Shown in pieces: positions 5,906 through 59,409 of a DNA stretch of 64,000 nucleotides. Each line of letters starts with the position of its first letter. Position 1 is the first letter of the stretch. The translations under genes and the position numbers were made by a program. The notes under the pieces were generated by a model. It saw nothing but the letters and a program-made list of their open reading frames with translations, had not been told where the DNA came from and did no database searches. Source of the DNA: Pelagibacterium sediminicola (GTDB taxonomy: Bacteria; Pseudomonadota; Alphaproteobacteria; Rhizobiales; Devosiaceae). Location of the stretch: the NCBI RefSeq assembly GCF_003390885.1, contig NZ_QMEL01000002.1, positions 62,001 through 126,000 on the forward strand, read 5' to 3'.

Positions 5906-6091
5906 CTAAGCCCGCCCCACCTCGCTCTTGATCCCCCGGCGCAGGAAGATGATGCCCAGCGCTTCCATGACGAGCTGCGCGCCGGAGTATTCGCCGAAGA
6001 CCGGGATGGTGATCCCGGCGAACTGGGCAATTCCGATGGCCAGCATCAAAAAGCCGATGACGTAGGTCTTGTAGCCGTCGAGAACGGTCAT
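5906..6091 (-). CDS. Possible nested in-frame product: 61-aa holin-like membrane protein
   Basis: Inside the endolysin frame, codon 189 is an ATG preceded by a full Shine-Dalgarno AAGGAG at 6100-6105 with eight bases of spacing. Translation from it would give MTVLDGYKTYVIGFLMLAI and so on: a short N-terminus, one clear transmembrane helix, an amphipathic helix and a basic RRGIK tail. This resembles small phage membrane proteins that are normally separate genes. The SD match is better than that of most true starts nearby. What is seen is the SD, the ATG and the membrane helix; that the product exists, and that it acts as holin or regulator of lysis, is inference. Confidence 0.45.
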   Translation of the reverse strand: MTVLDGYKTYVIGFLMLAIGIAQFAGITIPVFGEYSGAQLVMEALGIIFLRRGIKSEVGRA

Positions 6092-6655
6092 ATCGTTCAC
6101 TCCTTGGGGGTTGTCGGGCGCGGGGGCGCTGGCGGCGTCGGCCAGTGCGGTTGCACGGATGTCGGCGACGCGGTTCGTCCAGCCGCGCCCGAAGGTCGAA
6201 AAGATCGCAAGGCGCTGGAGGAAGCCGAGACGCTGGTCGCAAAGGGCGTTGATGAGGGCGCGGGTATCACGCCGGGCGACCGCATCGAGGGTGACGGGGC
6301 CGACAAAGCCGTCCTCGACAACGCCGACCAGCGCCTGCAGCGTCTTTACGGCTCGGTCGGGGCCGGAATTGACGGCGTAGTCGAAGACGGCGAGATCGAG
6401 GCCCGGCGGAAGCGAGGCAGCCTTCACGCGCTCCCAGTAAAGTGCCTTGTAGATCCCGGCGGCCTCGGCTTTTTCGAGTACCCTCACCTCAGCCTTGTCG
6501 AGCGCCCACCAGGGCTCCACACCGCGCCAGCGGGCCAGCGTCTTGTGGGTGATGCCCATATTGGTGGCGCCGCCGGGGTCGGAGGGATGATCGGCATATC
6601 CGCCCTCGTGCTTTAAAATCTGCGCAAGGCAATGGGTCCAGCGCGAAGCGGGCAT
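5906..6655 (-). CDS. Endolysin, glycoside hydrolase 108 family, with C-terminal membrane segment
   Basis: A 249-residue protein. Residues 5-105 form the GH108 (N-acetylmuramidase) domain with the diagnostic HEGGY motif, whose Glu17 is the expected catalytic acid, followed by DPGGATNMGIT. Residues 106-165 match the peptidoglycan-binding half (GFVGPVTLDA). After an Ala/Pro linker (about 170-188), the C-terminus holds a hydrophobic membrane helix (YVIGFLMLAIGIAQFAG) and a terminal FLRRGIK. An SD (GGAGA) precedes the ATG at 6655. It is the last gene of the gene transfer agent cluster and probably helps release particles. An internal, well-placed start may yield the membrane part separately (see the next entry). 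Confidence 0.8.
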   Translation of the reverse strand: MPASRWTHCLAQILKHEGGYADHPSDPGGATNMGITHKTLARWRGVEPWWALDKAEVRVLEKAEAAGIYKALYWERVKAASLPPGLDLAVFDYAVNSGPDRAVKTLQALVGVVEDGFVGPVTLDAVARRDTRALINALCDQRLGFLQRLAIFSTFGRGWTNRVADIRATALADAASAPAPDNPQGVNDMTVLDGYKTYVIGFLMLAIGIAQFAGITIPVFGEYSGAQLVMEALGIIFLRRGIKSEVGRA

Positions 6656-6681: not shown

Positions 6682-7626
6682 TCAGGCGTTGTCGGCGTAG
6701 CTCAACGCGATCCAGTCCGTGCCGCGCCGCACCAGCATCAGGCTGTCCTCGAACGCATCGAGTACCCGGTCCCCGCCGAGCTTGAGATTGCCGGTGCCAT
6801 CCTTGAAGGTGAGCGTCGTCCCCGCCGTGCCGGCAAGGATCAGCAAGGCGCCGTCAAAGCCACCGGTGATCGTGTCGATCTCGTCGGTCAGCCCCGTCTC
6901 GGGCGCGGGGACGGCGCAGCTTGTCGTCACCGCAAGGATGCCCGATGCGATGGTGGGAAAACTGACCGTCGAACCGGCCATCTGATCGAAGCGCACGAAG
7001 CCATCGGTCCGGTCGAGCGTCATCGCCGTCGACCAGGCCTCGCCATCCGGGCTGACCTTGAAGGCGAAGTCGTCATTGCCCGAAAGTCCGATTTCGGCGC
7101 GGCCCGACCAGCCGGACTGGAAGATCAGCGTGGCGCTATCGGCCGCCGTCTCCTTGTTGAGCGTCAGGCGCAGATTGCCGTTGCCGCCATCGCCATCGGG
7201 AATGGCGGTGAACAGCGCCGCTTCGGAGCGTACCGCAAGCCGGTTGGTTTCGTCCGGCAGCGCGCCGATGCCGAGGCCGGAGACGTTGGAAAGGAAGGCG
7301 CGCCAGTTCCCGCCCTCGAAGATGACGGGCGCGGCATCGGTTTCGTCCCAGGCGACCCAGCCGGTCCGGGGGATAAGGTAGCGCCAGCCGCCCTCGGTCC
7401 AACAGGCAAGCTGGCCGTCCCGGCCTTCCCATGCCGCTGTTGCGCCCGTGCCGATGGCGAATGTTTCGCCCGGTTCGGGTGTTTCGGGCGGATCGGTCAG
7501 GTCGCGCGCCGTCAGCCGCAACTGGGTGGCGGCATCGAGGATCAGCAGCGCCTCGTTATGGGTGACGTGTTTTTGCGCCTGTTCGGCGGCGATAAGCGGC
7601 AGGTCGAGCCGCGCGGTCGAGGTCAT
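6682..7626 (-). CDS. DUF2793 tail-associated protein
   Basis: A 314-residue protein. Residues 1-90 match the DUF2793 domain found at the ends of alphaproteobacterial gene transfer agent and phage tails (SD-like start MTSTARLDLPLIAAEQAQKH, then ACWTEGGWRYLIPR and GWVAWDET). The remainder is beta-rich and repetitive, with a C-terminal lobe resembling phage fibre domains. Its start overlaps the stop of the gp15-like gene by four bases (ATGA), so it is the next cistron of the same operon. A tail-tip or fibre component is the likely role; no enzymatic motif is visible. Confidence 0.75.
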   Translation of the reverse strand: MTSTARLDLPLIAAEQAQKHVTHNEALLILDAATQLRLTARDLTDPPETPEPGETFAIGTGATAAWEGRDGQLACWTEGGWRYLIPRTGWVAWDETDAAPVIFEGGNWRAFLSNVSGLGIGALPDETNRLAVRSEAALFTAIPDGDGGNGNLRLTLNKETAADSATLIFQSGWSGRAEIGLSGNDDFAFKVSPDGEAWSTAMTLDRTDGFVRFDQMAGSTVSFPTIASGILAVTTSCAVPAPETGLTDEIDTITGGFDGALLILAGTAGTTLTFKDGTGNLKLGGDRVLDAFEDSLMLVRRGTDWIALSYADNA

Positions 7627-10600
7627 GGGAACGCTCCGGTTGATGTGGCGCCCGGACCAAGCTCCGGGCTGATCTGGGTGACGGTGAAGGTGAAGGCGGA
7701 TGGCTGCTCGCCGAAGTCGGCGGCCTGCTGGGCGGCGGTGTAGATCGTGCCCGGCGTATCGGAGGTGACGGTCCGCACCCTCTCCGGCCCGTCGAAAATC
7801 TCCACGCTGTAGCGCTCTGGCAAAAAATCGAGCGGCATGTCGCCATAGGCCCAGCCCGTGCCGGAAGCGCGGCTGCGGCGGGTCCAGCTTAGCGAAACAT
7901 CGTCAGTGCCAGGATCGCGGAAGGCCACGAGATGGACAGGAGACAGCGGGGCCGCCGGTTCGATGCCCAGCGCGATATCCAGATTCGTCCCCTCGGCGTC
8001 CTCAACGCCCGCATAAGCCTTGAGGGCGCGGGTTGTGCCAAGATTGTCCTTCGGCACCGGCATGCGCACCACACGGTTGTCGAGAACCATTACGGATGCT
8101 TGTACCGTCGCCTCGCCGGGCGATGTACCATCAAGGCCCCGCAACAGGCCGGTGAGGCGATAGGCACCCGTTTCGACCAGTTCGGCATCGGCGAACCCGA
8201 TGACCTCCCAGTCGCCGTTGGCAAGCTCTACGGCGATGCGGTTGACGCCCGAAAGCACAGCGCCGGGCGCAGCCGAAGCCAGATGGCCGCTGAAGAGGTT
8301 CACGAGAAGCGGTGCCTCGTAGGACCAGATCTCCGAAAGCCCTTCGGGCATGGTTGCGGCGAGTGTGCCGAGAAAGGCGGGGCGATTGAGCGTGGCAACG
8401 GCGGCACCGGTCGTTGAATCGCGGATATCGATCGCGCCGGGCCACGGGGCGGCAAAGGCGCCCAGCACAAGCTCGGTCCCACCGCCCGCAACCGGCAGAT
8501 GCGCGGCGGCGAATAGCGGATCGGCGCCCGCAACTGGCACGATCCGCCCGCTGCGGCGCGGCTCGGAAACCACCGTGGCGGGCACTGCTTCGCCATGGGC
8601 GCGGGCGCCGATGGCGCGGCTGGCCCCGTCGCGCACCTCGCCCACGAGGAACGGCCCGTCGGTCTCCCCGGCAATGGTGACGATATCGGCGGGCTCGAGG
8701 GCCAGAAGCGATGGCGGCAGCTTGAAATCGAGCGTGTCGCTGCCGCGCGCCATGCGGGCAATCATCGCTTCGGCGGCAAGGCGGGCTGCCGAAGGATCGA
8801 GCACGAGGCCCGTATTTTCTGCCGCGATGCGCGTGCCGCCATGGGAAAGGGCCAGCACGGACGCAGCCTGATAATCGCGGCCCCGGTCGATGAACGAAAG
8901 GGTCAGCCGCCCGGCAGCTTCAGCGGGGTCTCCGCGCCGCCGGGCGAGAACCGGGCCGTCCTCACGCACCATCCGGCCATGGTCGAGCACGAGCGGCTCG
9001 CGGTCGTCCGGCGCAATCCAGTTGAGCCCTTCCGGGCCATCGCGCGGCACGAGACCGGTGGCCTCGGTCACCATGGCCAGGACATCGCGCATGGTCGCGA
9101 CCGCCTCGATGGTCAGGCCCTGGATCAGCGGCGGGGCGACGTCGATCCTGCCGACATCCACGCCATAGGCATCGGCCACTGCCCCGATCATCTCATCGAC
9201 CGCCGCAACGCCAAGCCGTCCGTTGAGCCAGTGGCCGGTGGCGTAATTGTCGCCATCGGACCAGATATCGGTGAAGGCGGGGAAGGCCGGATAGGGCCGC
9301 GCGTCCCAACACCAGATATAGATGCGCTCAAAATCGAGCATCGCGCCGCCTCTGGCCTTCCAGTATTGGAGGCAGGCGCGCAGCATCTGGCGCTGGATCA
9401 GCGCATCGGGCAGGCCGGACGAGAAGGGCGGGCGGGCATCCTCGGCGCTCTTGGGGTCGCCAAAGGCGTTGGGCGCGTTGGGGCCCTTGTCCACCGCGCC
9501 GCAACCCAGTTCAGTCAGCCATATCGGCTTGCTTTTGGGCACCCACGCGGTGGGCGTCGCAGACCGTACGCCGCCGACGCGGTTGTGGTGGGGCTGGCTC
9601 CACCAGTTTTCGAGGTCCTTATAGCGCCAGATCCATGGCTCGCCATGCCCCGCATCAGTTATGGGGGAGCGTTCGCTGCCGGCGCGCGCGCCGGCGCTGG
9701 CATAGTACCAGTCGAACCCCTCCCCGCCCGCGATGTTGGCGGCAAGATAGTCCGTGTCGTAGATCGAGCGCGCGTGCTGGGCGTCGGGGTGGTCCCGGCC
9801 ATCGCGCCAGTCGGCGAGCGGCATGTAATTGTCGATGCCCACCGCATCGATATTGGAGTCGGCCCACAGCGGGTCGAGGTGGAAGATCATGTCGCCCGGC
9901 GCATCGGCGGGCTGGTAGCCGAAATATTCCGACCAGTCGGCGGCATAGACGATCTTGGTGCCGCCCCCAACGATGTCCTGCACGTCCCCGGCCAGCGTTT
10001 TCAGCCCGTTGACGAAGGGAAACGCAATCGCGCCCGAGCGCACTTGCGTAAGCCCGCGCATTTCCGAGCCGATCAGGATGGCATCCACACCGCCCGCCGC
10101 TTCGGCGAGCTGGGCGTAATGCAGGATCATCTCGCGATAGCCGGAATTGAGGAAGGCGTCGACCTGCGTGGTGGCCGCGCCCGTTTTGTCGGGAGAGCCG
10201 GAAGCGCCCGGCGCGGGATGGCACGTGATCCGCCCGCGCCAGGGGTAAGCCGGCTGTCCGCTTTCGAGCGTATAGGGATCAAGCCGGGTGTTGGACGTGG
10301 GAATGTCCATCATCACGAACGGATAAAGCGTCACCTTGATGCCGCGCGACCGGAGATCGGCGATGGCCCGGCGCACCGTCGCGTCCGATGGCGTGCCGCC
10401 ATAGGCCGGTCCGCCAGCGTGGCTCGAAACGGTATTGGCCGTGCCCCGCGTGCGCCCGGCGACGGACCACTGGGCATCCTTGATCTGCCGGGAGGCGGAT
10501 TCGACGCGCGGCTCCACCGCGCAATTGCCGCAGCGCAGATCGGTGCCGAACCAGGAGACGACGAGTCCCACATGCTCGAGATTGGGGCAGAGCGCGGTCA

Positions 10601-11360
10601 ACTCGTCCATCGATACGTCCCAGTCCGAACGCATCGCGCTCATATGGGCGTTTTCCGGCGCCGTGCGGCCCGCGCCCACGATCCTGACGCGGGGCATCGG
10701 GTCGTAGCCGAATTCGGTGGAGCCGGGGATGACGCAGACGGCGCGCAAATCCTTTTCCAGTTCCCCCACCGGGCGGCAGAGTTCGACGCTGAGATTGGGA
10801 ATGCGGTTGCCGAACTGCTTGAGCGGCAGGCGCTCGAAAACGAGATAGCAGAGTCCGCGATAGCCCGGCACCTGCCCCGCCCCCTGCCGCGCCACCATGA
10901 AGCTGTCGGGCTGCTGGCTGGCGGTACCACGATAAAAGCGGACGGTCAGCCCTTCGGTTTCGAGCGGCTTGCCATCGGCCCAGATGCGCCCCAGGTGGGC
11001 GACCGGGCCTTCGCAGAGCGCCAGCGCGAAACTGGCAGCGATAACGTCCTCCTCCTCGCGCTGGCCGCCGAGGCCCTTGCTGCCGGAAGTCTCCTGCGGC
11101 AACCGTTCCAGATCGGTCGCCCAGATGATGTTGCCCGACACCCGGCTCCAGCCGAACAGGCGCGGCACGGACACGCCTTCGCTCGAACCGGTGATGCGGA
11201 TATCGCTTCCGGTGCGCTGCGGCGCGCTTTCGCCAAAGATCTGCGCATCCACCGCGCTGCCCGCCAGCGCTCCGAGCGCGCGCCCGATGGTCGCCCCGAT
11301 GGGGCCGCCGAGCATACCGCCAACGACCTGCCCGGCCAGCGAAAGTGCCAGTGTTGCCAT
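7623..11360 (-). CDS. GTA host-specificity/tail-tip protein, gp15-like
   Basis: A 1245-residue protein, close to the length of RcGTA gp15. It starts with a Gly/Ala-rich hydrophobic stretch (GQVVGGMLGGPIGATIGRALG), as in phage tail fibre-hub proteins. The central part (about 300-650) contains the GTA TIM-barrel-like domain, with segments such as ILIGSEMRGL and PIWLTELGCGAVDKGPNAPN. The C-terminal half matches the phage tail protein domains of gp15 homologues, including an FN3-like module near the end. In RcGTA this protein forms the megatron tail tip that contacts the recipient. The gene begins three bases after the NlpC/P60 gene ends and is intact. Confidence 0.9.
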   Translation of the reverse strand: MATLALSLAGQVVGGMLGGPIGATIGRALGALAGSAVDAQIFGESAPQRTGSDIRITGSSEGVSVPRLFGWSRVSGNIIWATDLERLPQETSGSKGLGGQREEEDVIAASFALALCEGPVAHLGRIWADGKPLETEGLTVRFYRGTASQQPDSFMVARQGAGQVPGYRGLCYLVFERLPLKQFGNRIPNLSVELCRPVGELEKDLRAVCVIPGSTEFGYDPMPRVRIVGAGRTAPENAHMSAMRSDWDVSMDELTALCPNLEHVGLVVSWFGTDLRCGNCAVEPRVESASRQIKDAQWSVAGRTRGTANTVSSHAGGPAYGGTPSDATVRRAIADLRSRGIKVTLYPFVMMDIPTSNTRLDPYTLESGQPAYPWRGRITCHPAPGASGSPDKTGAATTQVDAFLNSGYREMILHYAQLAEAAGGVDAILIGSEMRGLTQVRSGAIAFPFVNGLKTLAGDVQDIVGGGTKIVYAADWSEYFGYQPADAPGDMIFHLDPLWADSNIDAVGIDNYMPLADWRDGRDHPDAQHARSIYDTDYLAANIAGGEGFDWYYASAGARAGSERSPITDAGHGEPWIWRYKDLENWWSQPHHNRVGGVRSATPTAWVPKSKPIWLTELGCGAVDKGPNAPNAFGDPKSAEDARPPFSSGLPDALIQRQMLRACLQYWKARGGAMLDFERIYIWCWDARPYPAFPAFTDIWSDGDNYATGHWLNGRLGVAAVDEMIGAVADAYGVDVGRIDVAPPLIQGLTIEAVATMRDVLAMVTEATGLVPRDGPEGLNWIAPDDREPLVLDHGRMVREDGPVLARRRGDPAEAAGRLTLSFIDRGRDYQAASVLALSHGGTRIAAENTGLVLDPSAARLAAEAMIARMARGSDTLDFKLPPSLLALEPADIVTIAGETDGPFLVGEVRDGASRAIGARAHGEAVPATVVSEPRRSGRIVPVAGADPLFAAAHLPVAGGGTELVLGAFAAPWPGAIDIRDSTTGAAVATLNRPAFLGTLAATMPEGLSEIWSYEAPLLVNLFSGHLASAAPGAVLSGVNRIAVELANGDWEVIGFADAELVETGAYRLTGLLRGLDGTSPGEATVQASVMVLDNRVVRMPVPKDNLGTTRALKAYAGVEDAEGTNLDIALGIEPAAPLSPVHLVAFRDPGTDDVSLSWTRRSRASGTGWAYGDMPLDFLPERYSVEIFDGPERVRTVTSDTPGTIYTAAQQAADFGEQPSAFTFTVTQISPELGPGATSTGAFP

Positions 11361-11363
11361 GAA

Positions 11364-11780
11364 TTATTGTCCCGGAAATGCAAAGACGCCCGCGATGCGG
11401 CGCTGCCAGGCTTCGGTAAGGTCCGCCTCGACGACGCCAACCTGCTCCTGGGCATGAATGAAACGCCCCGCCTCCACCATGATCGCGCAATGGCGCGGCG
11501 GGCGGTGCCGGACGAGGGCGAAAAGGACGAGGTGCCCCGGCAATGGCTGCCCCTCGACCGCGACCATATGGCGGCGCGCCGCTCTTTCCAGCCCGCCGTC
11601 GCCCGCCGCGCGCCAGTCCGCGCCATAGGGCGGCACGGCCTGCGGCTCGCGCCCATAAAGCTCGCGCCAGACCCCACGCACGAGCCCGAGGCAGTCGCAG
11701 CCCGCCCCGCGCGTTGCCGCGCGATGGCGATAGGGCGTGCCCAGCCAGCGCCGCGCTTCGGCGATGATTTTCCCGCTCAT
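11364..11780 (-). CDS. GTA tail-tip cell-wall peptidase, NlpC/P60 family, gp14-like
   Basis: The 138-residue product is an NlpC/P60 cysteine peptidase. It has the catalytic Cys30 in GAGCDCLGLVRGVW, a His in RHCAIMVEAGRFIH, and the N-terminal EARRWLGTPYRH typical of the family. In RcGTA gp14 sits at the tail tip and opens the recipient peptidoglycan. The ATG at 11780 was chosen because it overlaps the stop of the gp13-like gene in an ATGA and gives exactly the family length; a longer reading in the same frame would run through the neighbour. It lies between the hub gene and the tail-tip gene, as in RcGTA. Confidence 0.9.
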   Translation of the reverse strand: MSGKIIAEARRWLGTPYRHRAATRGAGCDCLGLVRGVWRELYGREPQAVPPYGADWRAAGDGGLERAARRHMVAVEGQPLPGHLVLFALVRHRPPRHCAIMVEAGRFIHAQEQVGVVEADLTEAWQRRIAGVFAFPGQ

Positions 11781-12655
11781 CGCACCATCACGCCACCGTC
11801 GAGGCGGTCGGTGGCATTGGGGTAGCGCATAAGAAAATCGCTGCCCGGAATATGCGGGAAACCCTGAAAATTGGCGCCGTTGGAGAATTTTGTGCGGCAG
11901 GTCCCGAACTGCTTGTCGCATCCGGCGTAAACGGTCAGCGTATCGCCCGGCTCGGCCCAGTTGCCGACCGGGGAGGCGAACCCAAGCGTTCCGCCGGCAT
12001 GCTGCGTGATCGCGTCTTCGATCCCGATACGCTTGCCCGAGGTCCAGCGCGCGAAACCGTGGGTAAACCAGCCCTCGGCCAGGCTCCCAAGGCCGGTGAC
12101 AGCGAGCGTTGCCGGACCTCTGACCGCGCTGACCGTGGCGTTGCGCCTGTAGGCCGATGCCTCGAGATTGACCGTGCACCGTCCATCGCCGAGCGCGGCG
12201 TCGCACAGGTGCTGATAGAGCCTGCCTTTGGGCACATTGAGCGCGTGCTGGCCCGAGCGCAGTTCGGCGCGGAACACGCCGTCCTCGCGCACGATCTCGC
12301 CGATGGTATCGGCACGGATCAGCGCCCGCTGGTCCACATCGCGCCAGTTGACCCGCCAGCTTTCCACCCGCGCGCCATCATAGCGCCCGAGCAGGATGTC
12401 CTCCTCGGAAATGGCATCGGAATGGAGCACACCGAGCACTTCGGCGGTCTGGGCCTGCGCACCCGCGCGCTCGACGGTTTCGGAAGGATCGAGCCCGTGC
12501 GCCGGATTGAACCGGGTGCCGGCAAAATCGAGCGCCAGATCGTGATCGGTGAAACCGAGTACCACCCCGTCCCGGCGCACAATTTTCCAGCACCAGCAAA
12601 GCGTCGTCGCCCCGCTGGCGATATGATTGGCGAACCGGGAAGAAAAAGCCTTCAT
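11777..12655 (-). CDS. GTA tail hub protein, DUF2163, gp13-like
   Basis: A 292-residue DUF2163 / phage BR0599-family protein. The N-terminal domain has RRDGVVLGFTDHDLALDF; the C-terminal domain has the hallmark AGCDKQFGTCRTKF followed by NFQGFPHIPG. Four cysteines are arranged as two pairs (C151/C160 and C246/C253), consistent with metal or Fe-S cluster binding as reported for the RcGTA hub. Its start overlaps the gp12-like stop by ATGA and its stop overlaps the gp14-like start. It is intact and of family length. Confidence 0.9.
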   Translation of the reverse strand: MKAFSSRFANHIASGATTLCWCWKIVRRDGVVLGFTDHDLALDFAGTRFNPAHGLDPSETVERAGAQAQTAEVLGVLHSDAISEEDILLGRYDGARVESWRVNWRDVDQRALIRADTIGEIVREDGVFRAELRSGQHALNVPKGRLYQHLCDAALGDGRCTVNLEASAYRRNATVSAVRGPATLAVTGLGSLAEGWFTHGFARWTSGKRIGIEDAITQHAGGTLGFASPVGNWAEPGDTLTVYAGCDKQFGTCRTKFSNGANFQGFPHIPGSDFLMRYPNATDRLDGGVMVR

Positions 12656-13284
12656 TCGTCGAGCACCTCGATCAATGGGATATTAGGCGCAACCGCCGCG
12701 TCGAACCCCGAAAGCTCGACGTCGAGCCGGTCGGTATCGAAGCGCACGGGCACGTCGAACACGAAGCCCGCGGTCACAACCGCGCCATTGGCGGGCGCGG
12801 TGATGAGCGTCACGATGCCGGTTGAAAGGGCGACCGAGAATGCCCCGCCCGCCAGCGGCGAGCCATCGACCGCGAGGATGACGCTTCCCGTCACCGGTTT
12901 GGTGATCGGCCGCAAATAGGGATCGAAGCTCGCGCCGTAGCGCTTGACGAGCTGGAATTTGGTTTCCGCGCCGTCGCCCGTCCCGATCTCCTGGTCGAGC
13001 ACGGTGGGCGCCGCGCCATCGTTGCGCGAGGTGCAATCGAGCGCGTCGCGCCAGAGAAAGGCATGAAACCGCCCGCGCCGTTCCTCGAAGAATTCGAGCA
13101 CGGCCTGCATGTCGGCTTTCGACTTGACGCCGTAACCGGCATTGTACCGCCGCCGCGACCGCGCCCACCGGCTATTGCGCTCCTCGCGCCCGGAGGCGAG
13201 CGTCACCACATCGGTCAACCGCTGCGGGCCTCCGACGGCGCCGAGCGCGATATCGAGGGGGAAGCGGATTGGGTGGAAGGACAT
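12652..13284 (-). CDS. GTA distal tail protein, DUF2460, gp12-like
   Basis: A 210-residue DUF2460 protein: N-terminal FPLDIALGAVGGP, the conserved SGREERNSRWARSRRRYNAG, then EFFEERRGRFHAFLWRDALD. In RcGTA the equivalent forms the distal tail ring that links the tail tube to the hub. It is followed by the hub gene with a four-base overlap. Upstream it is separated from the tape-measure gene by about 190 bases occupied by a type A palindromic repeat, an interruption not expected in a tight structural operon. Confidence 0.9.
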   Translation of the reverse strand: MSFHPIRFPLDIALGAVGGPQRLTDVVTLASGREERNSRWARSRRRYNAGYGVKSKADMQAVLEFFEERRGRFHAFLWRDALDCTSRNDGAAPTVLDQEIGTGDGAETKFQLVKRYGASFDPYLRPITKPVTGSVILAVDGSPLAGGAFSVALSTGIVTLITAPANGAVVTAGFVFDVPVRFDTDRLDVELSGFDAAVAPNIPLIEVLDE

Positions 13285-13475: not shown

Positions 13476-14018
13476 CTAACTCCCCCGCCCGCCCCTGCGC
13501 ACCGCCCGCAGGAGCATGGCGTTGACCTCCGCTTCGGCGGCCAGAAAACTTCGCGCGTCCGAAGCCGTCACGTTGAAATTGACCGTCACCGCGCCACCGC
13601 CCGCGACGCCCAGTCGCCCATCGGCTCCGCGCTGGAGGGGCATCACAGCTTCCGGTCCAGCCTCCCCGGCCAGCCCCCACTGCCCCGGCATCGGGAAATA
13701 TGTGGGCGATCCGATCACGCCGCCCTTGGCAAACGGCTTCACCCCGCCCAGCGCCGGATTGAGGGAAGCGAACAGACTTTCGATGCTGCCGGACACCAGG
13801 GTTCCGAGCGGCTTCAACGCCGCCTTGAGGGCGATATCGGCAAAGGCGCGGCCGATTTCGCTTAAGAGGCCGCGCAGCGAGCGGCCTTCCATCATCGCGC
13901 CGCGCAAGCTGCGCGTCAGCGTTGCGCCGACCGACTGGCCGAGATCGCGGATGCGTTCGAGTTCGACCGGAATATCGGACAGTTCGCGGTCGAACGCCTC
14001 GCCGAAAAGTTCAGACAT
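13476..14018 (-). CDS. GTA tail tape-measure protein, gp11-like
   Basis: A 180-residue, short tape-measure protein. It has an amphipathic helical N-terminal half (residues 1-80) and a conserved C-terminal part with KPFAKGGVIGSPTYFPMPG, LAGEAGPEAVMPLQR and a terminal beta/helix segment. The same C-terminus occurs at the end of many long tape measures, and the family in RcGTA-type clusters is similarly short, predicting a short tail. I chose the ATG at 14018 because GGAGG lies six bases upstream; an ATG at 14030 lies in front of that SD. The gene overlaps the end of the small chaperone gene by eight bases. Confidence 0.85.
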   Translation of the reverse strand: MSELFGEAFDRELSDIPVELERIRDLGQSVGATLTRSLRGAMMEGRSLRGLLSEIGRAFADIALKAALKPLGTLVSGSIESLFASLNPALGGVKPFAKGGVIGSPTYFPMPGQWGLAGEAGPEAVMPLQRGADGRLGVAGGGAVTVNFNVTASDARSFLAAEAEVNAMLLRAVRRGGRGS

Positions 14019-14214
14019 TATTGCCTCCATCCGGGTGCAGTGCCATCAGCGCTTCAAGAGCCGAGCGGTCGAGCGGGCCCGCCGCGCCGCGCCCCGAAAG
14101 CCCGGCATGGGCCTCGGCCAGTTCACGCGGCGTCATCGCCCAGAAAAGCGGTGGCGGCAGGCGCAATACGCCCAGCCCGAACCGCATCATCTCGCTCCAG
14201 GGCAAGCGACTCAT
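14011..14214 (-). CDS. GTA small tail assembly chaperone, gp10.1-like
   Basis: A 67-residue protein of the Phage_TAC_2 / rcc01693 type: MMRFGLGVLRLPPPLFWAMT followed by the conserved PRELAEAHAGLSGRG. Its start overlaps the stop of the gp10-like gene (ATGA) and its end overlaps the tape-measure gene. In tailed phages two chaperone frames at this position coat the tape measure before tube assembly. Here they are separate overlapping genes rather than a frameshift product. Confidence 0.85.
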   Translation of the reverse strand: MSRLPWSEMMRFGLGVLRLPPPLFWAMTPRELAEAHAGLSGRGAAGPLDRSALEALMALHPDGGNNV

Positions 14215-14525
14215 TGCGCGTCCCCGAAGGTCGCCTTCAGAAGCTGCACGGCGATTTCCGCCGCGCCCCGCAGTCCGCCTTCGATCGCAAGCCGGGCGAG
14301 GTCATCGTCGGTCACCGGATGGCCCGCCCCGCGCAAGCCCGCGCCCAGAATGGCGGTGAGGTCGCGTGCCGAGATACGGCCTTGGGCAAACCGCTCGACG
14401 AGCCCGTTGAGATCGCCGGTCTGCAACCGGGCCTCGAGTTCGGCGAGCGCGCCCAGCGTCAGGCACAGCGTCATCGTCTCGCCGCCGATCTCGGCGTCGA
14501 TTTCACCCCTTTGGGGATTGGCCAT
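14211..14525 (-). CDS. GTA tail assembly chaperone, gp10-like
   Basis: A 104-residue protein of the GTA_gp10 family, with N-terminal RGEIDAEIGGETMTLCLTLG, the helix ALAELEARLQTGDLNGLVERF and a C-terminal helical segment with the VTDDDLARLAIEGG pattern. It lies between the tail-tube gene and the small chaperone as in RcGTA, and its stop overlaps the next start. The predicted role is in tail assembly rather than in the mature particle. Confidence 0.85.
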   Translation of the reverse strand: MANPQRGEIDAEIGGETMTLCLTLGALAELEARLQTGDLNGLVERFAQGRISARDLTAILGAGLRGAGHPVTDDDLARLAIEGGLRGAAEIAVQLLKATFGDAQ

Positions 14526-14536: not shown

Positions 14537-14950
14537 CTAATCCGCCGTGAACGTGATCTCGCCCGCGCTTTCCAGCGCCAGCTCGAACGTCACCTCGCCT
14601 GCGTGATCGCCGGAAAACTCCAGCGCGACGATCTGGAACGGCCCCTCGACGGTCCCGAAATCGGGCAGGATCAGCTGCCAGTCGCGGATCGTTCCATCAA
14701 AGAACAGCGCCCGCACCTCGGCGTCCGAGGTCTTGTCCTTGAAGATGCCCGAGCCGGAGACCGAGGCGCGCTTGATGCCGCCTCCGGCCAGAAGCTCGCG
14801 CCAGCGTCCGGCGCTTTCCGCATCGGTGGTGTCGACGCTTGCCGCGTTGAAGGCGAGGCTGCGCGTGCGCAGGCCCGCCACGGTCAGAAAACTGCCCGAC
14901 CCGGTCTGGTCGAGCTTCAAAAGCATGTCCTTGCCGCTCTGGGCCGTCAT
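14537..14950 (-). CDS. GTA major tail (tube) protein, gp9-like
   Basis: A 137-residue tail-tube protein of the TP901-1 / Phage_tail_2 family. Signature parts are the N-terminal AQSGKDMLLKLDQ, the segment TDAESAGRWRELLAGGG, and the beta-rich end with SGDHAGEVTFELALESAGEI. It would polymerise into the hexameric rings of the tail tube. It begins close behind the tail-terminator gene (four bases after its stop) and is intact. Confidence 0.9.
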   Translation of the reverse strand: MTAQSGKDMLLKLDQTGSGSFLTVAGLRTRSLAFNAASVDTTDAESAGRWRELLAGGGIKRASVSGSGIFKDKTSDAEVRALFFDGTIRDWQLILPDFGTVEGPFQIVALEFSGDHAGEVTFELALESAGEITFTAD

Positions 14951-14953
14951 CGT

Positions 14954-15361
14954 TCAGTCCTTGGGTTCGGAGAAAAAGCGAAAGGTCACCGCCGCACGGG
15001 CGCGGCCGGTGGAAAGATCGATCCTGGTTTCGGTGCGCACATGGCGGCGCACCGTCAGCACGTGCTCGTCTGGCTCGATCGGGCCGGCCACCACCACCCG
15101 CTCGATGCGGTCGGCGATTTCGAGGGCGGCGCGGCGGGAGGGGTGCGGGGTCCAGCAATGGACGGTCATCCGATGCTCGAAGCCGGGCGTCTCATCGCCA
15201 TCGCGCGGCGCGGTGTCGTGGCTGAGGATGGTGACATAGGGCGGCTGGCGGCCCCTGGGCGGGGCGTCGAACACCGCGCCCGCCCCCACCAGCAGCGTCA
15301 GTGCAGCGTCAGAAGACCAGGCGGAAACAAGAGCGGTCTGGATGTCGTCGATAACGTTCAT
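14954..15361 (-). CDS. GTA tail terminator, DUF3168, gp8-like
   Basis: A 135-residue DUF3168 protein with ALVSAWSSDAALTLLVGAG, the conserved PPYVTI and the MTVHCWTPH strand, ending in VTFRFFSEPKD. In tailed particles this family caps the tail tube and joins it to the head. The ATG at 15361 was chosen because it gives the usual family length and follows the adaptor gene stop by four bases; a longer open frame upstream lies inside that neighbour. Confidence 0.9.
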   Translation of the reverse strand: MNVIDDIQTALVSAWSSDAALTLLVGAGAVFDAPPRGRQPPYVTILSHDTAPRDGDETPGFEHRMTVHCWTPHPSRRAALEIADRIERVVVAGPIEPDEHVLTVRRHVRTETRIDLSTGRARAAVTFRFFSEPKD

Positions 15362-15365: not shown

Positions 15366-15707
15366 CTACCCCACCATCGCGGTTTCGATGCACAGGCAGG
15401 CGAGATAAGCCCGCCGCCCGTTGATGTCCTCGGCCTCGACGATCTCCAGCGCCCGCCCGCAATAAACGATGCGGTCGCCGGGCTTGAGATCCTTGCGAAA
15501 ACGCATGGTGACGGCGTGGGTCGAGGTCGCGGTGCGCCCATCCCCTTCGCGCGAAAAGCGCGCCGAACGCGCCCGGACGCGTGCCCAGACGCTGGCAATG
15601 GGCAGGAACAGCGTTTCGTGCCCGCCATCGGGCGCAACGCTCATTTCGCGCTTCTGGAGCTGAACGCGGTCACGGAGTGTGCCGAGCGGCGGCGATAGCT
15701 CTCTCAT
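15366..15707 (-). CDS. GTA head-tail adaptor (head closure), gp7-like
   Basis: A 113-residue head-closure protein of the phage SPP1 gp16 type: LGTLRDRVQLQKRE at the N-terminus, IASVWARVRARSAR in the middle, and RKDLKPGDRIVYCGRALEIV towards the end. The start at 15707 overlaps the stop of the connector gene by ATGA. It bridges the portal-adaptor ring and the tail terminator. It is intact. Confidence 0.9.
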   Translation of the reverse strand: MRELSPPLGTLRDRVQLQKREMSVAPDGGHETLFLPIASVWARVRARSARFSREGDGRTATSTHAVTMRFRKDLKPGDRIVYCGRALEIVEAEDINGRRAYLACLCIETAMVG

Positions 15708-16273
15708 ATCCGCACCCGCCGGTAACTGGCGAGAATGCGGTCGAACCCCGACGGAATGATCCCAGCCGCGCCGACCGCAAGCACCGCGTCGCGGTTTTCG
15801 TACCAATAGGCAACAAGGGTCAGCAGCGCCTGGATGAGATCGGCGGGCACATCCTCAGGCGCCTTGCCATACCCGGCGGTATAGTCGATCTCGACGCCGA
15901 GCCGTTCGCGGATCGAAGGCCGGTTGCCGGGCAGCACCACGCGCGGCGGAATGCCGTGCCCGTCCAGCAGCGCCCCCTCGGTGTCGATGATGTGCGGCTC
16001 GCCATGCTCATCATAGGTACGGATTTCATCGAGCGACTGCACCGGGCCAACCGGTAGCATGACGATGCCGTTGGCAGGCCAGTCGTCCCGCACCAGCCGC
16101 CAGCTCTGCTCCAGCAGCGCCCGGCCCGTCACGCCCTCGATATGGACGCGCGCGGCGGTAATGAGGCTTTCGATCAGCCCGTCCTCGGCGTCATCGTCGA
16201 CCCTGAGATGAGCCTTGGCCTGGACGAGTGAAACCGGCTCCTGCGCGGGCCCCGCGAGAAGGAAGGAGGTCAT
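15704..16273 (-). CDS. GTA head-tail connector, gp6-like
   Basis: A 189-residue gp6-like head-tail connector. The N-terminal helix pair EPVSLVQAKAHLRVDDDAED and LIESLITAARVHIEGVTGR is the family signature, followed by the beta segment SWRLVRDDWP and the late motif EIDYTAGYG. It forms the adaptor ring beneath the portal. Its upstream neighbour is the capsid gene, but a type B repeat block of about 130 bases separates them. Confidence 0.9.
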   Translation of the reverse strand: MTSFLLAGPAQEPVSLVQAKAHLRVDDDAEDGLIESLITAARVHIEGVTGRALLEQSWRLVRDDWPANGIVMLPVGPVQSLDEIRTYDEHGEPHIIDTEGALLDGHGIPPRVVLPGNRPSIRERLGVEIDYTAGYGKAPEDVPADLIQALLTLVAYWYENRDAVLAVGAAGIIPSGFDRILASYRRVRI

Positions 16274-16442: not shown

Positions 16443-17686
16443 TCAATCCTCGGCAAATCTGAGCAGCTTGATCGCGTCGAAATCGGCGATCCCGCCGCCC
16501 ACGCGCTTGGTGGTGTAGAACAGCACGTAGGGCTTGGCCGAATAGGGATCGCGCAGGACGTTCACGCCCTGGCGGTCCACGATAAGGTAACCGCGCCGGA
16601 AATCGCCGAAGGCGATGGGGGTGGCATCATTGTCGATGTCGGGCATGTCCTCGGCCTCGACCAGCGGGAAGCCCATCAAGCTGGCGCGGCCATCGGGTGC
16701 GGCGGCAGGTTGCCAGAGGTAGTTGCCGTCGGCGTCCTTGAGCTTGCGGATCGCCCCTTGCGTGCGCCGGTTCATCAGCCAGGTGGCGTTCTGGCGGTAG
16801 CCGGATTTGAGCGCATAGACGAGGTCGATCAAGACGTCCGAGGCATCCGCGGGTGCCGATCCGCCGGGGAACCCGCCGTCGACACCGGTCGCGATATAGC
16901 CCAGCTTGTCCCACGCCCAGTTCTCTTCGGCAACGATGTCCGCATCGAGAAAGCCGGTGGGCTTGTTGGCGCCGTCCCCGAGGATGAAGGCGGCGGTTTC
17001 CTGTTCGGCAAAGGCGGCATTGACCTCCTCGGCGATCCACTGGCCGACATCGACGGCGGCGTCATCGAGGAAGTTCTGGGTTGCCGCGGGCATGGCGTAG
17101 AGTTCGGTCGTGGGGAAGGCGAGTTCGTCCAGCACCTGCGAACCGGTCTGGACGCGCGCCGCCGTCTCGCCTACCCATCCGACCTGCGGGCCGGTGATAG
17201 TAATCGGTTTTTTATAGACCGATGACGACACCTGCCGCACGCCGCAAATGGCGCGCATGGGCGAGATGGCCGTCAGGAGCCGCGAGATTTCGGTTTCGGT
17301 CTCTGCGGGCACGAGATAGCCGCCGTCTTCATTCGAGCCGACCGAGAGTGCCTTTTCCTCGCCGCGCTTCACATAGGCCGAAAAAGAGTCCTTGTATTCG
17401 TCGCCGGCGCACAGGCGGCCGGTTTCCAGCGCCGGGCGGGCGCGGTCGATGCTGGCCTTGTCGATGGCGGCTTTCCGGTCATCGAGAAAGGCGTTGAGCC
17501 GGTCGAGCTTGTCCTCGATCAGCGTATCGGCGCTCCCGCGCTTTCGATCTCATCGAGGCGCGCGTCGTTGGACGCCTTGAACTCCTCGAAAGCGGACATG
17601 AATTCGCCAAGCATGGCGTTGACGTCGCCCAAAACGGGGCTGGCCGCCGCCTTGTTTTCAAGGCGCGGTTGGATGGTCTTGGTCAT
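16443..17686 (-). pseudogene. GTA major capsid protein (HK97 fold), gp5-like, frameshifted
   Basis: The gene starts at the ATG at 17686 (SD AAGGAAC) with MTKTIQPRLENKAA, the N-terminal scaffold (delta) domain, and reads to LDEIESAGAPIR before a TGA at 17519-17521. The expected continuation, ADTLIEDKLDRLNAF and on through DEYKDSFSAYVKRGEEKAL into the HK97 capsid body (VPAETETEISRLL to IKLLRFAED), lies in another frame. The span of 1244 bases is one short of a multiple of three, and one added base near 17531-17540 restores ESAG-S-ADTL. The second frame has no ATG in its first part. This is either a real inactivating deletion or a sequencing error; no convincing slippery site is seen. Confidence 0.85.
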
Positions 17687-17699: not shown

Positions 17700-18188
17700 T
17701 CAGCTAAACATGCGCGCTGCCGCGCCGAGCGTTGCGGCAAGCCGGGCCTCGTGCCCGTCGGGCGCGGAGGCGATCCGCGCCGCTTCCATCATCGGGAAAG
17801 TGACGATGGAAATTTCCCACAGGTCCACGGCCCAGAGCCGCCGGTGACCCGTCCCCCGGTCGCGGGTGGCGCGGACCGCGCGGAACCCGATGGAGAGCCC
17901 ATCGAGCGCGCCCTGCGCGATCAGGGATTTAAGATGAGCGGCGCGCGGCACCACATCGAGGAGGCGCCCCGAAACCCTCAATCCCCGCGCGTCCTCGACG
18001 ATCTCGTCCCAGAGCCCGATCGGCTCCTTGGGGTCGTGCTGAAACAGCAGCCGCACTCTTGCCGGGGCGCGCCTGCGGAGCGTTTCGGCAAAGGCGCCGG
18101 GCATGACGATATCGCCGCCCTGGTCGAGCTGGCCGAACAGCGAGGCGTAACCGGAAAACCGCCCGTCGGCATCGATAGTCGCACCCAT
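17700..18188 (-). CDS. GTA prohead protease, gp4-like
   Basis: A 162-residue HK97-type prohead protease (family S78): MGATIDADGRFSGYASLFG, QGGDIVMPGAF, the catalytic His51 in LFQHDPKEPIG, and Ser99 in GLSIGFRA, then LWEISIVTFPM. It removes the capsid delta domain during maturation. The ATG follows directly the stop of a 44-codon gene (TGAATG) and the gene ends 13 bases before the capsid start. It is intact. Confidence 0.9.
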   Translation of the reverse strand: MGATIDADGRFSGYASLFGQLDQGGDIVMPGAFAETLRRRAPARVRLLFQHDPKEPIGLWDEIVEDARGLRVSGRLLDVVPRAAHLKSLIAQGALDGLSIGFRAVRATRDRGTGHRRLWAVDLWEISIVTFPMMEAARIASAPDGHEARLAATLGAAARMFS

Positions 18189-18650: not shown

Positions 18651-19823
18651 TCAGCCGAAATCAGCTCTTCCAAACCCGAGCAATTCCCGCTTCTCGTCAT
18701 CGCTGAGGAACGCCGCGTTCCCCACCCGCTCCCAATCGAGCTTGCGATCCGCCGCCAGCGCCTCGATCACGTCGAAGTCCGGCACCAGCGCCGCGCCGTC
18801 GAATGCAGGCGAGAGCCAGTGGTTGAGCGCGGCAAGCACCTTGGTGACGAGCGGGATCACCGTCTGCCGCCAGAGCGCACGGCTGGCTTCGGCGTAATTG
18901 GCGTAGGTGTTGTCGCCGGGAATGCCCAGCAGCATGGGTGGCACGCCGAAGGCCAGCGCGATCTCGCGCGCGGCGGCGTTCTTGGCTTCGAGAAAATCCA
19001 TGTCCTTGGGCGTGAGCGCGATGGCCTTCCAGTCCAGCCCGCCCTCGAGCACCATGGGGCGGCCCGCATTGAGCGCCCCGGCGAAACCTTCCTCGAGTTC
19101 GCCCTTGAGCCGCTGATACTGGTCTTCCGTGAGGTTCCCGGAGCCCGCATTGTAAACCAGCGCACCGGAGGGCCGCGCCGCGTTTTCCAGCAGCGCGCGG
19201 TTCCAGGCGGTCGCCGCGTTATGCGTTTCCAGACTGCCCTGCGCGGCATCGAGCGGGGCCTGCCCGTAATGATCGTCGAGCGGGTTGAACAGCGTCAGAT
19301 GCAGGACGCGCGCTATGGGCGCGGTGTCGAGCATCAGGCGCGCCGTCCTGCCTCCGGCGGTATAGGCGTAGCCCGTCGGCCACCCGTCGCGCCCCGCGAT
19401 CACCGTCATCCGATCGGGCCTGAGGCCATAGAGCCCCTTCACCACGCCATCGACGATCGCGGCATCAAGATAGGCGTTGCCCGCAATCTGGAGATAGGCA
19501 TAGACGCTTTCGAGCAGCGCCTTGCCATCCTCGCGCGGGTTGGGACGGGCGAGCAGGCCGAGCAGGGGATGCTCAGTCAGAACCGCGTTGCCATCCGCCA
19601 CTTCCAGCGGCACCCGCGCGGCGCTTTCGGCCACCAGCCGCACGCAGCGATAAGCCACCGGATTGCGCGCGAACCCTTCATTGGCCAGCGCCGCGAACCC
19701 CTTTTTCAGGCTGGTGCCGGTGCCCAGGTGCGACAGCGTGAACAGCGTCTGCGGTCCGGCCATCTTCCTTTCGGAAGGCACGGCGGCAGGGCCGGCAAAC
19801 AGCCGGGTGAACCAGTTTGGCAT
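18651..19823 (-). CDS. GTA portal protein, gp3-like
   Basis: A 390-residue HK97-family portal protein: VAYRCVRLVAESAARVPLEV, EHPLLGLLARPNP, YAYLQIAGNAYL, and the later FGVPPMLLGIPGDNTYANY with the helix ASRALWRQTVIPLV that lines the channel. It forms the dodecameric DNA gate of the head. Length and motif order fit the RcGTA portal. The stop codon lies at the edge of a palindromic repeat, so the last residues may have been altered by repeat insertion. Confidence 0.92.
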   Translation of the reverse strand: MPNWFTRLFAGPAAVPSERKMAGPQTLFTLSHLGTGTSLKKGFAALANEGFARNPVAYRCVRLVAESAARVPLEVADGNAVLTEHPLLGLLARPNPREDGKALLESVYAYLQIAGNAYLDAAIVDGVVKGLYGLRPDRMTVIAGRDGWPTGYAYTAGGRTARLMLDTAPIARVLHLTLFNPLDDHYGQAPLDAAQGSLETHNAATAWNRALLENAARPSGALVYNAGSGNLTEDQYQRLKGELEEGFAGALNAGRPMVLEGGLDWKAIALTPKDMDFLEAKNAAAREIALAFGVPPMLLGIPGDNTYANYAEASRALWRQTVIPLVTKVLAALNHWLSPAFDGAALVPDFDVIEALAADRKLDWERVGNAAFLSDDEKRELLGFGRADFG

Positions 19824-19841: not shown

Positions 19842-21119
19842 CTACCGCACCCTTGGCACCGGACCATCCTCGAGCATCAGCGCTGTAATGGCCCAGACCA
19901 GCGCGTCCACCCGGTCCGGCGAATGGCCATCGGCCATCCCGTCCGCGCCGAACACGCACATTTCGTCTTCGAGTTCGGGGAAGGGCTCGGCGTGCTTTAC
20001 CCGTCCCCGCGCATAGAGCGCCGCAACCGGTTCGGCCCGCACCCATTTGCCGCGTGTGGCGCGCACCTGGCGCACCGGCACCGCTCCATCCACGTGCGAG
20101 ATCAGCGTGCTCACCAGGTCGCCGCCCTGGTTGACCTCGGCAACGATGGCATCGGCCTCGAATTCATGGAACGCAACGACCGCAAGGCTCGCCCAGCGAT
20201 CCGGGCTCACGCCCCTCACCGTCCGGTCGGCCAGCACCACCGCGATCTCGTCGGCCCGCCCCGCAATAACGATACCGCAGGCATCCGAACGCGCATGGCC
20301 TGTGACCGGCGGGTCTACCGCGACGACGATCCGGCCCATATCCGGCGCCATGCCGATGCGTGCCGCCTCGATTCCGCTGCGCGTCCAGAGCGCGCCGGGC
20401 AAGTCCTCGATGAACTCGCCCTCCAGTTCCTGCCGCCCCAGCGCTGTGCCATCATAACGGCCCACCACAGCCGAAAGGAACGGCGGCGCGAGATTGGCCG
20501 CGTTATCGGAAGTGGGCATTACCGTTTTCACCGTCCCCGGCTCGGCCAGCAGCCGCTTCAGGAGCCGCGTGGGTTTTGGCGTCGTCGTCACGATCTGGCG
20601 CGGCCGGTCGCCCAGCCGCAGCGCAAATTGCAGCATGTCCCAGGCCGCTTCCGCATTGGGCCATTTGGCCAGTTCATCCGACCAGGCCGCCGCAAATTGC
20701 GGCCCGCGGAACCGTTCGGGATCATTGGCGGGCAGGAGCATGGCCTGCGCGCCATTGTTCCAGGTCAGGAGATGCCGCCCCGCATCGAAATGCGGGCGCT
20801 CGTCATGGGCGTGGATCGCCAGAAGACCCGAAACCCCTTCCACCATCACGGCCCGCGCCTCCGTCATGGTTTCGCCGACCAGCGCGATGGGCGAAACTGG
20901 CGGATCGGCCAGCGCCATCAGCCTGATCCATTCCGCCCCGGCCCGCGTCTTGCCTGAGCCGCGTCCGCCGATCAGAAGCCATGTCGTCCAGTCGCCGTCG
21001 GGCGGCGCCTGTTCGGTGCGCGCCCACCAGCTCCAGAAGCCGTATTCGCGGATGAAGGCTTCATCGTCGAGTTCGGCGACGAGCGGATGGATGCCCCCGT
21101 CAGCCCTTTTGCTGCTCAA
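19842..21119 (-). CDS. GTA large terminase, gp2-like
   Basis: A 425-residue DNA-packaging motor. Walker A is GGRGSGKT (51-58), Walker B ends in Asp148-Glu149 (AAWSDELAKW), followed by IVTTTPKPTRLLK. The C-terminal nuclease domain shows VAVDPPVTG and the late acidic DRVDALVWA. The start is a TTG at 21119 that lies inside the small-terminase gene (20-base overlap), consistent with coupling. All core motifs are intact. Confidence 0.92.
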   Translation of the reverse strand: MSSKRADGGIHPLVAELDDEAFIREYGFWSWWARTEQAPPDGDWTTWLLIGGRGSGKTRAGAEWIRLMALADPPVSPIALVGETMTEARAVMVEGVSGLLAIHAHDERPHFDAGRHLLTWNNGAQAMLLPANDPERFRGPQFAAAWSDELAKWPNAEAAWDMLQFALRLGDRPRQIVTTTPKPTRLLKRLLAEPGTVKTVMPTSDNAANLAPPFLSAVVGRYDGTALGRQELEGEFIEDLPGALWTRSGIEAARIGMAPDMGRIVVAVDPPVTGHARSDACGIVIAGRADEIAVVLADRTVRGVSPDRWASLAVVAFHEFEADAIVAEVNQGGDLVSTLISHVDGAVPVRQVRATRGKWVRAEPVAALYARGRVKHAEPFPELEDEMCVFGADGMADGHSPDRVDALVWAITALMLEDGPVPRVR

Positions 21120-21522
21120 GCTCGAATATCCGGCGCGAGAGGCGCTTTCTCATGTCCTGCAATTGCGGGCTGGACGGCTTGTTGCGCTGTGCCGACCGGC
21201 TGGCGACATCGAGTTCGATCAGTTTATCGAGCGTGCGCGCCATGTGGCCAAGCGCCTGCACTTCGGGCGCCCGGTCGTCATCGGCCATGTCGCTCAACTG
21301 GACGATCTGGTTCTCGAACAGCCCGAAAAGCTGGCCGATCAACGCATCGTGCCCCGCCCCGGTCGGTCTGGTATGGCGCAGCCGCCAGCCCTCGCACAAC
21401 CGCCTGCGGCGCAACGCCAGCAAGGTGATGCCATATTTTTCCACCAGTGCCGCCACCGGCATTTCGCCATCCTCATACTCGGCCCGGACGGCACCCCAAT
21501 CCGGCTCCGTGCTGCCCGACAT
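21100..21522 (-). CDS. GTA small terminase-like protein, gp1-like
   Basis: The 140-residue product opens with a helix-turn-helix-like module (WGAVRAEYEDGEMPVAALVE, then KYGITLLALRRRR), a central helical part, and a C-terminal coiled segment (MRKRLSRRIFELEQQKG). It is the first gene of the cluster, where RcGTA g1 encodes the small terminase, which has reduced sequence specificity so that random host DNA is packaged. The ATG at 21522 has GGAGGGG three bases upstream; a longer reading from 21561 is possible but lacks such an SD. The promoter should lie in 21523-21655, where I see no clear regulatory box. Confidence 0.8.
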   Translation of the reverse strand: MSGSTEPDWGAVRAEYEDGEMPVAALVEKYGITLLALRRRRLCEGWRLRHTRPTGAGHDALIGQLFGLFENQIVQLSDMADDDRAPEVQALGHMARTLDKLIELDVASRSAQRNKPSSPQLQDMRKRLSRRIFELEQQKG

Positions 21523-21653
21523 CGCCCCTCCAAAACAAAAGGGCACCGCCGCTGCCGGCAATGCCCATTTCTTCGACCATGGCAGAACTATAGCTGATCA
21601 GCGTGACGCGGGGATAAGTTCTTCCGGACCGGAAAATACGGCGTTCCGGAGAG

Positions 21654-59048: not shown

Positions 59049-59409
59049 CGGCCACCACCTCCCGGCGGGCGCGGGACCCGGTTTCCATCCAGCCGGAAAT
59101 GGCATCCTCCAGAATTTCGATTTCACGGTCGACCGCATTATCCTCGCGCGCATCCTCGATAAGCGCGCAGGCATACGAGACGGTGGTCCGGTCGCGGCCG
59201 AAATAGCGGCCCACTTCGGTGAGGTTCAGCCCCAGCATGACATGGCACAGATACATGGCCAGTTGCCGCGCCGAGGCGATCGGCAGGCGCGAGCGCGTCG
59301 GGCTGAGCATATCGGCACGGCGCACCCCCTTATGGGCGGCAACGATGCGCAAAACCCGCGCACAGCCCATATCGGACACAGCGGGTGCGGAACGAGACTT
59401 TCGTGTCAT
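59035..59409 (-). CDS. Stand-alone DnaA domain IV-like protein
   Basis: A 124-residue protein whose core (about 40-95) is the DNA-binding domain IV of DnaA: RQLAMYLCHVMLGLNLTEVG, then RYFGRDRTTVSYACALIED, including the signature GRDRTTVSYA. The AAA+ ATPase part of DnaA is absent. Such truncated proteins are common in Rhizobiales and could compete for DnaA boxes or act as transcription regulators. It forms an operon with the DUF6456 gene. The ATG at 59409 is the only start with the full domain. Confidence 0.8.
   Translation of the reverse strand: MTRKSRSAPAVSDMGCARVLRIVAAHKGVRRADMLSPTRSRLPIASARQLAMYLCHVMLGLNLTEVGRYFGRDRTTVSYACALIEDAREDNAVDREIEILEDAISGWMETGSRARREVVADAAV

What the first reader, a model, noticed from the sequence alone, without database searches (positions are those of the whole stretch)
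17519..17560. One-base frameshift splits the GTA major capsid gene
The delta-domain part ends with LDEIESAGAPIR and a stop, while ADTLIEDKLDRLN continues in the other frame. The gene spans 1244 bases (3n+2). Adding one base near 17531-17540 gives the expected ESAGSADTL. The second frame has an upstream stop and no early ATG, so no complete capsid is made without frameshifting. All other structural genes look intact, so this may be a recent loss of an otherwise preserved GTA, or a sequencing error.
Basis: seen in the sequence. Interest (0 to 1): 0.7.

Follow-up and report, generated by a model that had tools for sequence, protein, structure and literature searches.

The report
Broken capsid gene disables gene-transfer particles
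A Pelagibacterium bacterium carries the genes for virus-like particles that shuttle DNA between cells, but one missing base breaks the gene for the particle's shell, so it most likely no longer makes them; several relatives have damaged or lost the same machinery in other ways.

Summary
The frame break is real in the sequence. The GTA major capsid gene (g5) runs on the minus strand from 17686 to 16443 (1244 bases, 3n+2). The first frame stops after 55 codons; the rest, matching residues 49-414 of an intact relative, lies in another frame. Alignment with nine Pelagibacterium relatives moves the lesion slightly: the one-base shortfall lies at 17541-17545, so "SAGAPIR" is already out of frame and the conserved "KRGSADTL" opens the second frame. 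The 16 other cluster genes tested match P. limicola in one frame. Of 104 genes compared with P. limicola, the capsid gene was the only true frame break. Its main part is still conserved. This points to a recent loss rather than poor sequence, but no reads were available. Losses recur in the genus: P. luteolum has two different one-base gaps, again only in the capsid gene, and five other genomes have deletions; a gene tree needs at least two frameshift and four deletion changes. Programmed frameshifting or internal starts are poorly supported. GTA pseudogenization is already described (PMC10883770), so this is a clean, young example of a known process, possibly a "cheater" lineage.

The parts
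17519..17686 (-). First-frame fragment of the GTA major capsid gene (g5): 55 aa from the N-terminal (delta/scaffold) part, stop TGA at 17521-17519
17541..17545 (-). Site of the one-base shortfall against nine Pelagibacterium relatives
16443..17549 (-). Second-frame part of the capsid gene (368 codons and stop), matching residues 49-414 of the P. limicola capsid; holds the PF05065 HK97-type domain
17370..17372 (-). First ATG/GTG/TTG codon of the second frame (GTG), at about residue 106; AAGGA lies about 16 nt upstream, a weak ribosome-binding context
21100..21561 (-). g1-like small open frame upstream of the large terminase (71% identical to P. limicola over 136 residues; no Pfam match)
19842..21119 (-). 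Large terminase (g2), single frame
18651..19823 (-). Portal (g3), single frame
17700..18188 (-). Head maturation protease (g4), single frame
15704..16273 (-). Head-tail adaptor (g6), single frame
15366..15707 (-). Head closure (g7), single frame
14954..15361 (-). Tail completion (g8), single frame
14537..14950 (-). Major tail protein (g9), single frame
14211..14525 (-). g10 tail protein, single frame
13476..14030 (-). Tape-measure-like protein (g11), single frame
12652..13284 (-). g12, single frame
11777..12655 (-). g13 baseplate hub (PF09931, PF09356), single frame
11370..11780 (-). g14 NlpC/P60 protein, single frame
7623..11360 (-). g15 with GTA TIM-barrel domain (PF13547) and Rcc01698-like C-terminal domain (PF23666), single frame
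6682..7626 (-). DUF2793 protein next to g15, single frame
5906..6655 (-). Glycosyl hydrolase 108 gene (PF05838, PF09374), single frame
58596..59174 (-). DUF6456 protein, like the GTA activator GafZ / C-terminal part of GafA; the domain is found in 13 of 13 genus genomes, including those without a GTA capsid
   Evidence: roles from PMC11150451 passages
59035..59409 (-). 124-aa protein with a DnaA C-terminal helix-turn-helix domain overlapping the DUF6456 gene; GafY-like by position and domain (inferred)

Best explanation
The window holds an RcGTA-type head-tail cluster of a Pelagibacterium whose capsid gene has suffered a recent one-base deletion at 17541-17545. Translation yields a 55-residue N-terminal stub and no full-length capsid (shown by sequence). 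Without capsid, the terminase, portal, protease and tail genes can still be expressed, but no DNA-carrying particle should form (inferred). The strain is therefore most likely a GTA non-producer that keeps DNA-uptake genes, an early stage of the repeated GTA decay seen in the genus; the large deletions in relatives look like later stages (order inferred).
For: Two-frame match to an intact relative; a one-base gap at a place where none of nine aligned relatives has one; only true frame break among 104 genes / 35,062 aa compared with P. limicola: 92 gave one unbroken match, and of the 11 other flagged rows ten were over-long start choices in the P. limicola reading frames and one a two-residue longer end; the 16 other cluster genes match P. 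limicola in one frame (their match to the window itself is trivial); capsid residues 49-413 have Ka/Ks 0.076; independent damage in the genus: P. luteolum has two one-base gaps in g5 only, and G001/G002, G004, G005, G009 have deletions; the tree needs at least 2 frameshift and 4 deletion changes; the flanking PreP gene, a control for assembly quality, is split in frame only in G025, G073 and G074 of the family and is whole in G000 and G007; ComEC and DprA domains in 13 of 13 genomes; pseudogenized clusters as recent cheaters proposed in PMC10883770 (passages).
Against: No reads and no second isolate: the IMG/VR copy is letter-identical over 6,927 bases and is probably the same assembly. Conserved pieces are also what a sequencing error would leave. 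For capsid residues 53-413 the window has 4 private changes against 0 in P. limicola, while the other 15 cluster genes tested sum to 47 against 59; the N-terminal parts 1-46 and 53-104 have Ka/Ks 0.28-0.29, above the other cluster genes. These could mean slight relaxation, i.e. a less recent break. ComEC, DprA and DUF6456 are kept in GTA-less relatives too, so they do not single out a cheater.
Confidence: 0.82

Rival explanations
1. Assembly or sequencing error: the gene is whole in the organism.
For: No reads seen; the lesion lies in a short single-base run; other genomes show error-like breaks: Devosia sp. A8/3-2 (L046) in 8 cluster genes, the capsid included, and G025, G073, G074 in the PreP gene.
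Against: No other true frame break in 104 compared genes; genome rated 100% complete, 0.1 contamination; a lone error would have fallen in g5 in a genus where g5 is broken in P. luteolum and the cluster is damaged in five more genomes.
Confidence: 0.11
2. Separate translation: the second frame starts internally (GTG 17372, or CTG 17522 overlapping the first stop), giving a nearly mature capsid plus an N-terminal stub in trans.
For: The GTG lies at about residue 106; in RcGTA residues 99-106 are described as the N-terminus of the ordered capsid (PMC7296036, passages). CTG at 17522 overlaps the TGA.
Against: Weak ribosome-binding context for the GTG; CTG is rarely a start (recalled); 7 of 9 aligned relatives have the same GTG as an ordinary in-frame valine, so it did not arise for this; the P. 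luteolum breaks lie inside the mature domain and could not be bypassed this way.
Confidence: 0.04
3. Programmed ribosomal frameshifting joins the two frames.
For: The RNA around the site folds somewhat better than shuffles (z -2.41; 3 of 200 shuffles as good).
Against: None of nine aligned relatives changes frame here: seven are full length in one frame, G009 is cut by a deletion further on, G007 is broken at other codons; no classical slippery heptamer seen by eye (sequence); breaks in other family genomes lie at different codons.
Confidence: 0.03

Closest known systems
RcGTA major capsid protein Rcc01687 (g5), PDB 6TB9/6TBA
   Same: The P. limicola orthologue aligns over residues 17-412, E 2.1e-86
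   Different: The window copy is split by a one-base shortfall
Pseudogenized alphaproteobacterial GTA clusters (Kogay and Zhaxybayeva 2024, PMC10883770; passages read)
   Same: Cluster kept with inactivating damage, recurrent loss, cheater reading proposed there
   Different: That text does not mention Devosia or 'frameshift' (term search); here one base in one gene is identified, with whole and decayed relatives in the same genus
Pelagibacterium luteolum CGMCC 1.10267 GTA (L044; G007 shows the same pattern)
   Same: Only the capsid gene is broken among the cluster genes tested
   Different: Two one-base gaps at other codons, in the mature domain

Membership tests
RcGTA-type gene transfer agent head-tail cluster | g2-g15 homologues in order on one strand | tested here: met
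   large terminase to GTA_TIM g15, 21119 to 7623
RcGTA-type gene transfer agent head-tail cluster | Unbroken capsid gene | tested here: not met
   two frames; so a functional GTA is not claimed
RcGTA-type gene transfer agent head-tail cluster | Old resident at a shared chromosomal place rather than a recent prophage insertion | tested here: inconclusive
   Collinear with P. limicola across most of the window; in other genomes the PreP gene lies on the same contig as the cluster or its remnant at roughly 0.3 to 70 kb (positions); full synteny not tested
RcGTA-type gene transfer agent head-tail cluster | Activator of the GafA/GafYZ kind present | tested here: met
   DnaA_C-type HTH protein overlapping a DUF6456 protein at 58596-59409; function not tested
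RcGTA-type gene transfer agent head-tail cluster | Release of particles carrying host DNA | not testable with these tools
   needs a culture
Pseudogene | Frame-disrupting lesion absent from orthologues | tested here: met
Pseudogene | Relaxed selection after the lesion | tested here: inconclusive
   4 against 0 private changes, yet Ka/Ks 0.076 and mostly mild changes
Programmed frameshift gene | Frame change conserved among orthologues | tested here: not met

The most novel reading that the evidence does not exclude
Breaking the capsid is a favoured first step of GTA loss: cells that lose the costliest structural gene escape the expense of particle making while keeping tail, lysis-side, activator and uptake genes, either as cheaters or with a headless tail product put to another use. 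Two Pelagibacterium lineages broke g5 independently and nothing else tested in the cluster.
Probability: 0.1. Interest if true: 0.6.

Novelty: new member of a known kind. Interest (0 to 1): 0.32.

Why it matters
GTAs persist although producing cells die, and how non-producers arise and spread is an open question. A cluster caught with one lesion and the rest intact, beside relatives at later stages and relatives still whole, gives one genus in which the order and cost of GTA loss could be measured.

Tried and rejected
Rejected: programmed frameshift (no conservation; only a weak RNA fold signal). Rejected: rescue by the second HK97-type capsid of the genome (G000:C1), whose neighbourhood holds a ClpP-like protease (by eye) and which is 49-54% identical. 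Tried: promoter and terminator scan near the gene, nothing that bears on the question. Tried: an independent copy in IMG/VR; the 100% hit is the same sequence.

Tried: enrichment of breaks in g5. Of 136 Devosiaceae genomes I counted by hand, from a list that the tool cut short, 99 with a g5 match of at least 66% identity; 6 are split in frame on one contig (G000, G007, G023, G073, G074, G106), 2 cut by deletion (G009, G048), 2 cut by contig ends (G017, G132), 1 has an in-frame stop (G089) (details). G025, G073 and G074 also have a split PreP gene; I treat them as error-prone, and without them 4 of 96 are split. Portal splits were G023, G025 and G050, with truncated portals in G004, G054, G077 and G135. 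The difference between g5 and portal is too small to claim enrichment. G023 has breaks in five cluster genes but a whole PreP gene: decay or error, undecided.

Mistakes mended: one search used a wrong reading frame as query; its numbers were discarded and done instead. A first reading that set one flagged 270-aa row aside as non-coding was wrong: it is the DUF6456 gene with an over-long start. The rows after g6 are empty or nearly so because its nine-genome filter left 0-3 columns; only TerL, portal, g4, g5 and g6 are used.

Full report
What is there. The window is G000:C35:62001-126000 of a 3.24 Mb draft in 46 contigs rated 100% complete. Named relatives from the genome scan place it with Pelagibacterium, nearest P. 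limicola NAJP-14, 94% in the capsid C-part. An RcGTA-like cluster lies on the minus strand from 21561 to 5906: g1-like frame, large terminase, portal, protease, capsid, adaptor, head closure, tail completion, major tail protein, g10, tape measure, g12, hub g13, NlpC/P60 g14, GTA_TIM g15, DUF2793 and glycosyl hydrolase 108. The numbers g1-g15 are assigned by order and recalled RcGTA naming. A small 62-residue frame between portal and protease is also open and conserved.

The break. From ATG 17686 to stop 16443 the gene has 1244 bases, 3n+2. The first frame gives 55 aa and stops at 17521-17519; the second is open from 17549. The P. limicola capsid matches as residues 1-52 and 49-414 in two frames. 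In a DNA alignment with nine relatives the window row has one gap, at 17541-17545, and no other row has one there. The end of the first frame, SAGAPIR, is therefore out-of-frame reading, and the second frame opens with the conserved KRGSADTL. The break sits in the N-terminal part; in RcGTA the ordered capsid is described from residues 99-106 on (PMC7296036, passages).

Intact copies exist. Of 13 Pelagibacterium genomes, seven have a full-length single-frame GTA capsid gene (G003, G005, G006, G008, G010, G011, G012), two have frame breaks (G000, G007), G009 is cut by a deletion, and G001, G002 and G004 have none (G002 and G004 do have more distant capsids of 38% and 47%). Of 27 loci from the genome collection 23 match in one frame; L044 and L046 are split, L043 is cut short, L048 starts at the locus edge. 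Of 32 IMG/VR loci 29 match in one frame, a few of them distant and partial; L121 (identical to the window), L145 (same pattern as P. luteolum) and L147 are split.

Error or mutation. Over 226 kb of the same contig against 256 kb of P. limicola, 104 genes (35,062 aa) were compared; 92 gave one unbroken match. The other 12 rows were the capsid gene and 11 that on inspection are ten over-long start choices in the P. limicola frames, where the real gene is whole in the window, and one two-residue longer end. In contrast Devosia sp. A8/3-2 has breaks in 8 cluster genes, as expected of a noisy assembly. The flanking PreP gene (Pfam PreP_C) is split in frame only in G025, G073 and G074 of the family; some further genomes have it cut by contig ends. 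Reads were not available, so error keeps about 11%.

Age. Ka/Ks of capsid residues 49-413 against P. limicola is 0.076; the other cluster genes range from 0.056 to 0.224. The N-terminal parts 1-46 and 53-104 have 0.29 and 0.28; whether that is usual for this region was not tested. At columns where outgroups agree, the window has 4 private changes and P. limicola 0 for residues 53-413; the other 15 genes tested sum to 47 against 59. In a stricter nine-genome test the window has 5 private capsid changes (F26L, G70D, A101S, V164I, K410R) where the others have 0 to 12. Relaxation is thus weak at most and the lesion is read as young.

The wider pattern. In P. luteolum (G007) only the capsid gene is broken, by two one-base gaps at other codons. 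G005 keeps head genes but has lost most of g6 onward; G004 has lost the portal C-part to g11 and has a terminase frame break; G009 has internal deletions; G001 and G002 keep g1, a terminase-g15 joint in one frame, DUF2793 and GH108; in G010 the DUF2793 gene is interrupted. On a tree of the PreP protein the frameshifts need at least two and the deletions at least four changes, with G010 counted as intact; two inner branches are weakly supported and two rows are identical. Decay is recurrent and has no one fixed direction, since G005 lost the tail side.

How it works, and what is known. With no capsid no particle should form, while activator and uptake genes remain: a DnaA_C-type protein overlapping a DUF6456 protein at 58596-59409, the arrangement of the Caulobacter GTA activators GafY and GafZ, which resemble the two ends of GafA (PMC11150451, passages), and ComEC and DprA domains in 13 of 13 genomes. 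The DUF6456 domain is also in 13 of 13. Because GTA-less relatives keep them too, they do not prove a cheater. Kogay and Zhaxybayeva write that pseudogenization and complete loss occur in multiple lineages and that pseudogenized clusters may be recently emerged cheaters (PMC10883770, passages); the capsid gene is where selection for translational efficiency is most pronounced (PMC9765227, passages), which fits a costly gene. Searches pairing Pelagibacterium or Devosia with 'gene transfer agent' listed 2 and 3 papers, none on this subject by title and abstract; nothing outside that library was searched.

Verdict. It is an ordinary but clean and young example of GTA loss, of moderate interest because the genus shows several stages side by side.

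Noticed in passing
L110 (G002) 12665-14974 and L112 (G001) 8958-11267: A deletion has joined the terminase N-part (residues 17-160) and the g15 C-part (608-1245) in one reading frame; a similar capsid-g15 joint in one frame lies in L117 (G048) 9660-11459.
   Followed up: partly
window 5906-6655: The GH108 gene is whole in six decayed clusters (G001, G002, G004, G009, G048, G089), while G005 keeps only its last 33 residues.
   Followed up: partly
window 58596-59409: A DnaA_C-type HTH protein overlaps a DUF6456 protein, a two-gene GafYZ-like arrangement also seen in P. limicola; RcGTA has one fused GafA.
   Followed up: partly
L002 1096-2382 (G000:C1): A second, unbroken HK97-type capsid gene (428 aa) beside a ClpP-like protease, likely a separate prophage.
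   Followed up: partly
L046 (Devosia sp. A8/3-2, CP104974): Frame breaks in 8 cluster genes of a record titled complete genome, which looks like assembly error.
   Followed up: partly
G023, G073, G074 capsid genes near codon 310: Frame breaks lie near the same codon in three family genomes, two of them error-prone; an error-prone run or a shared lesion.
   Followed up: no
L115 (G106) 3555-4768: Another capsid frame break, at codons 85-88; the neighbouring cluster genes on this 7.9 kb contig match in single frames.
   Followed up: no
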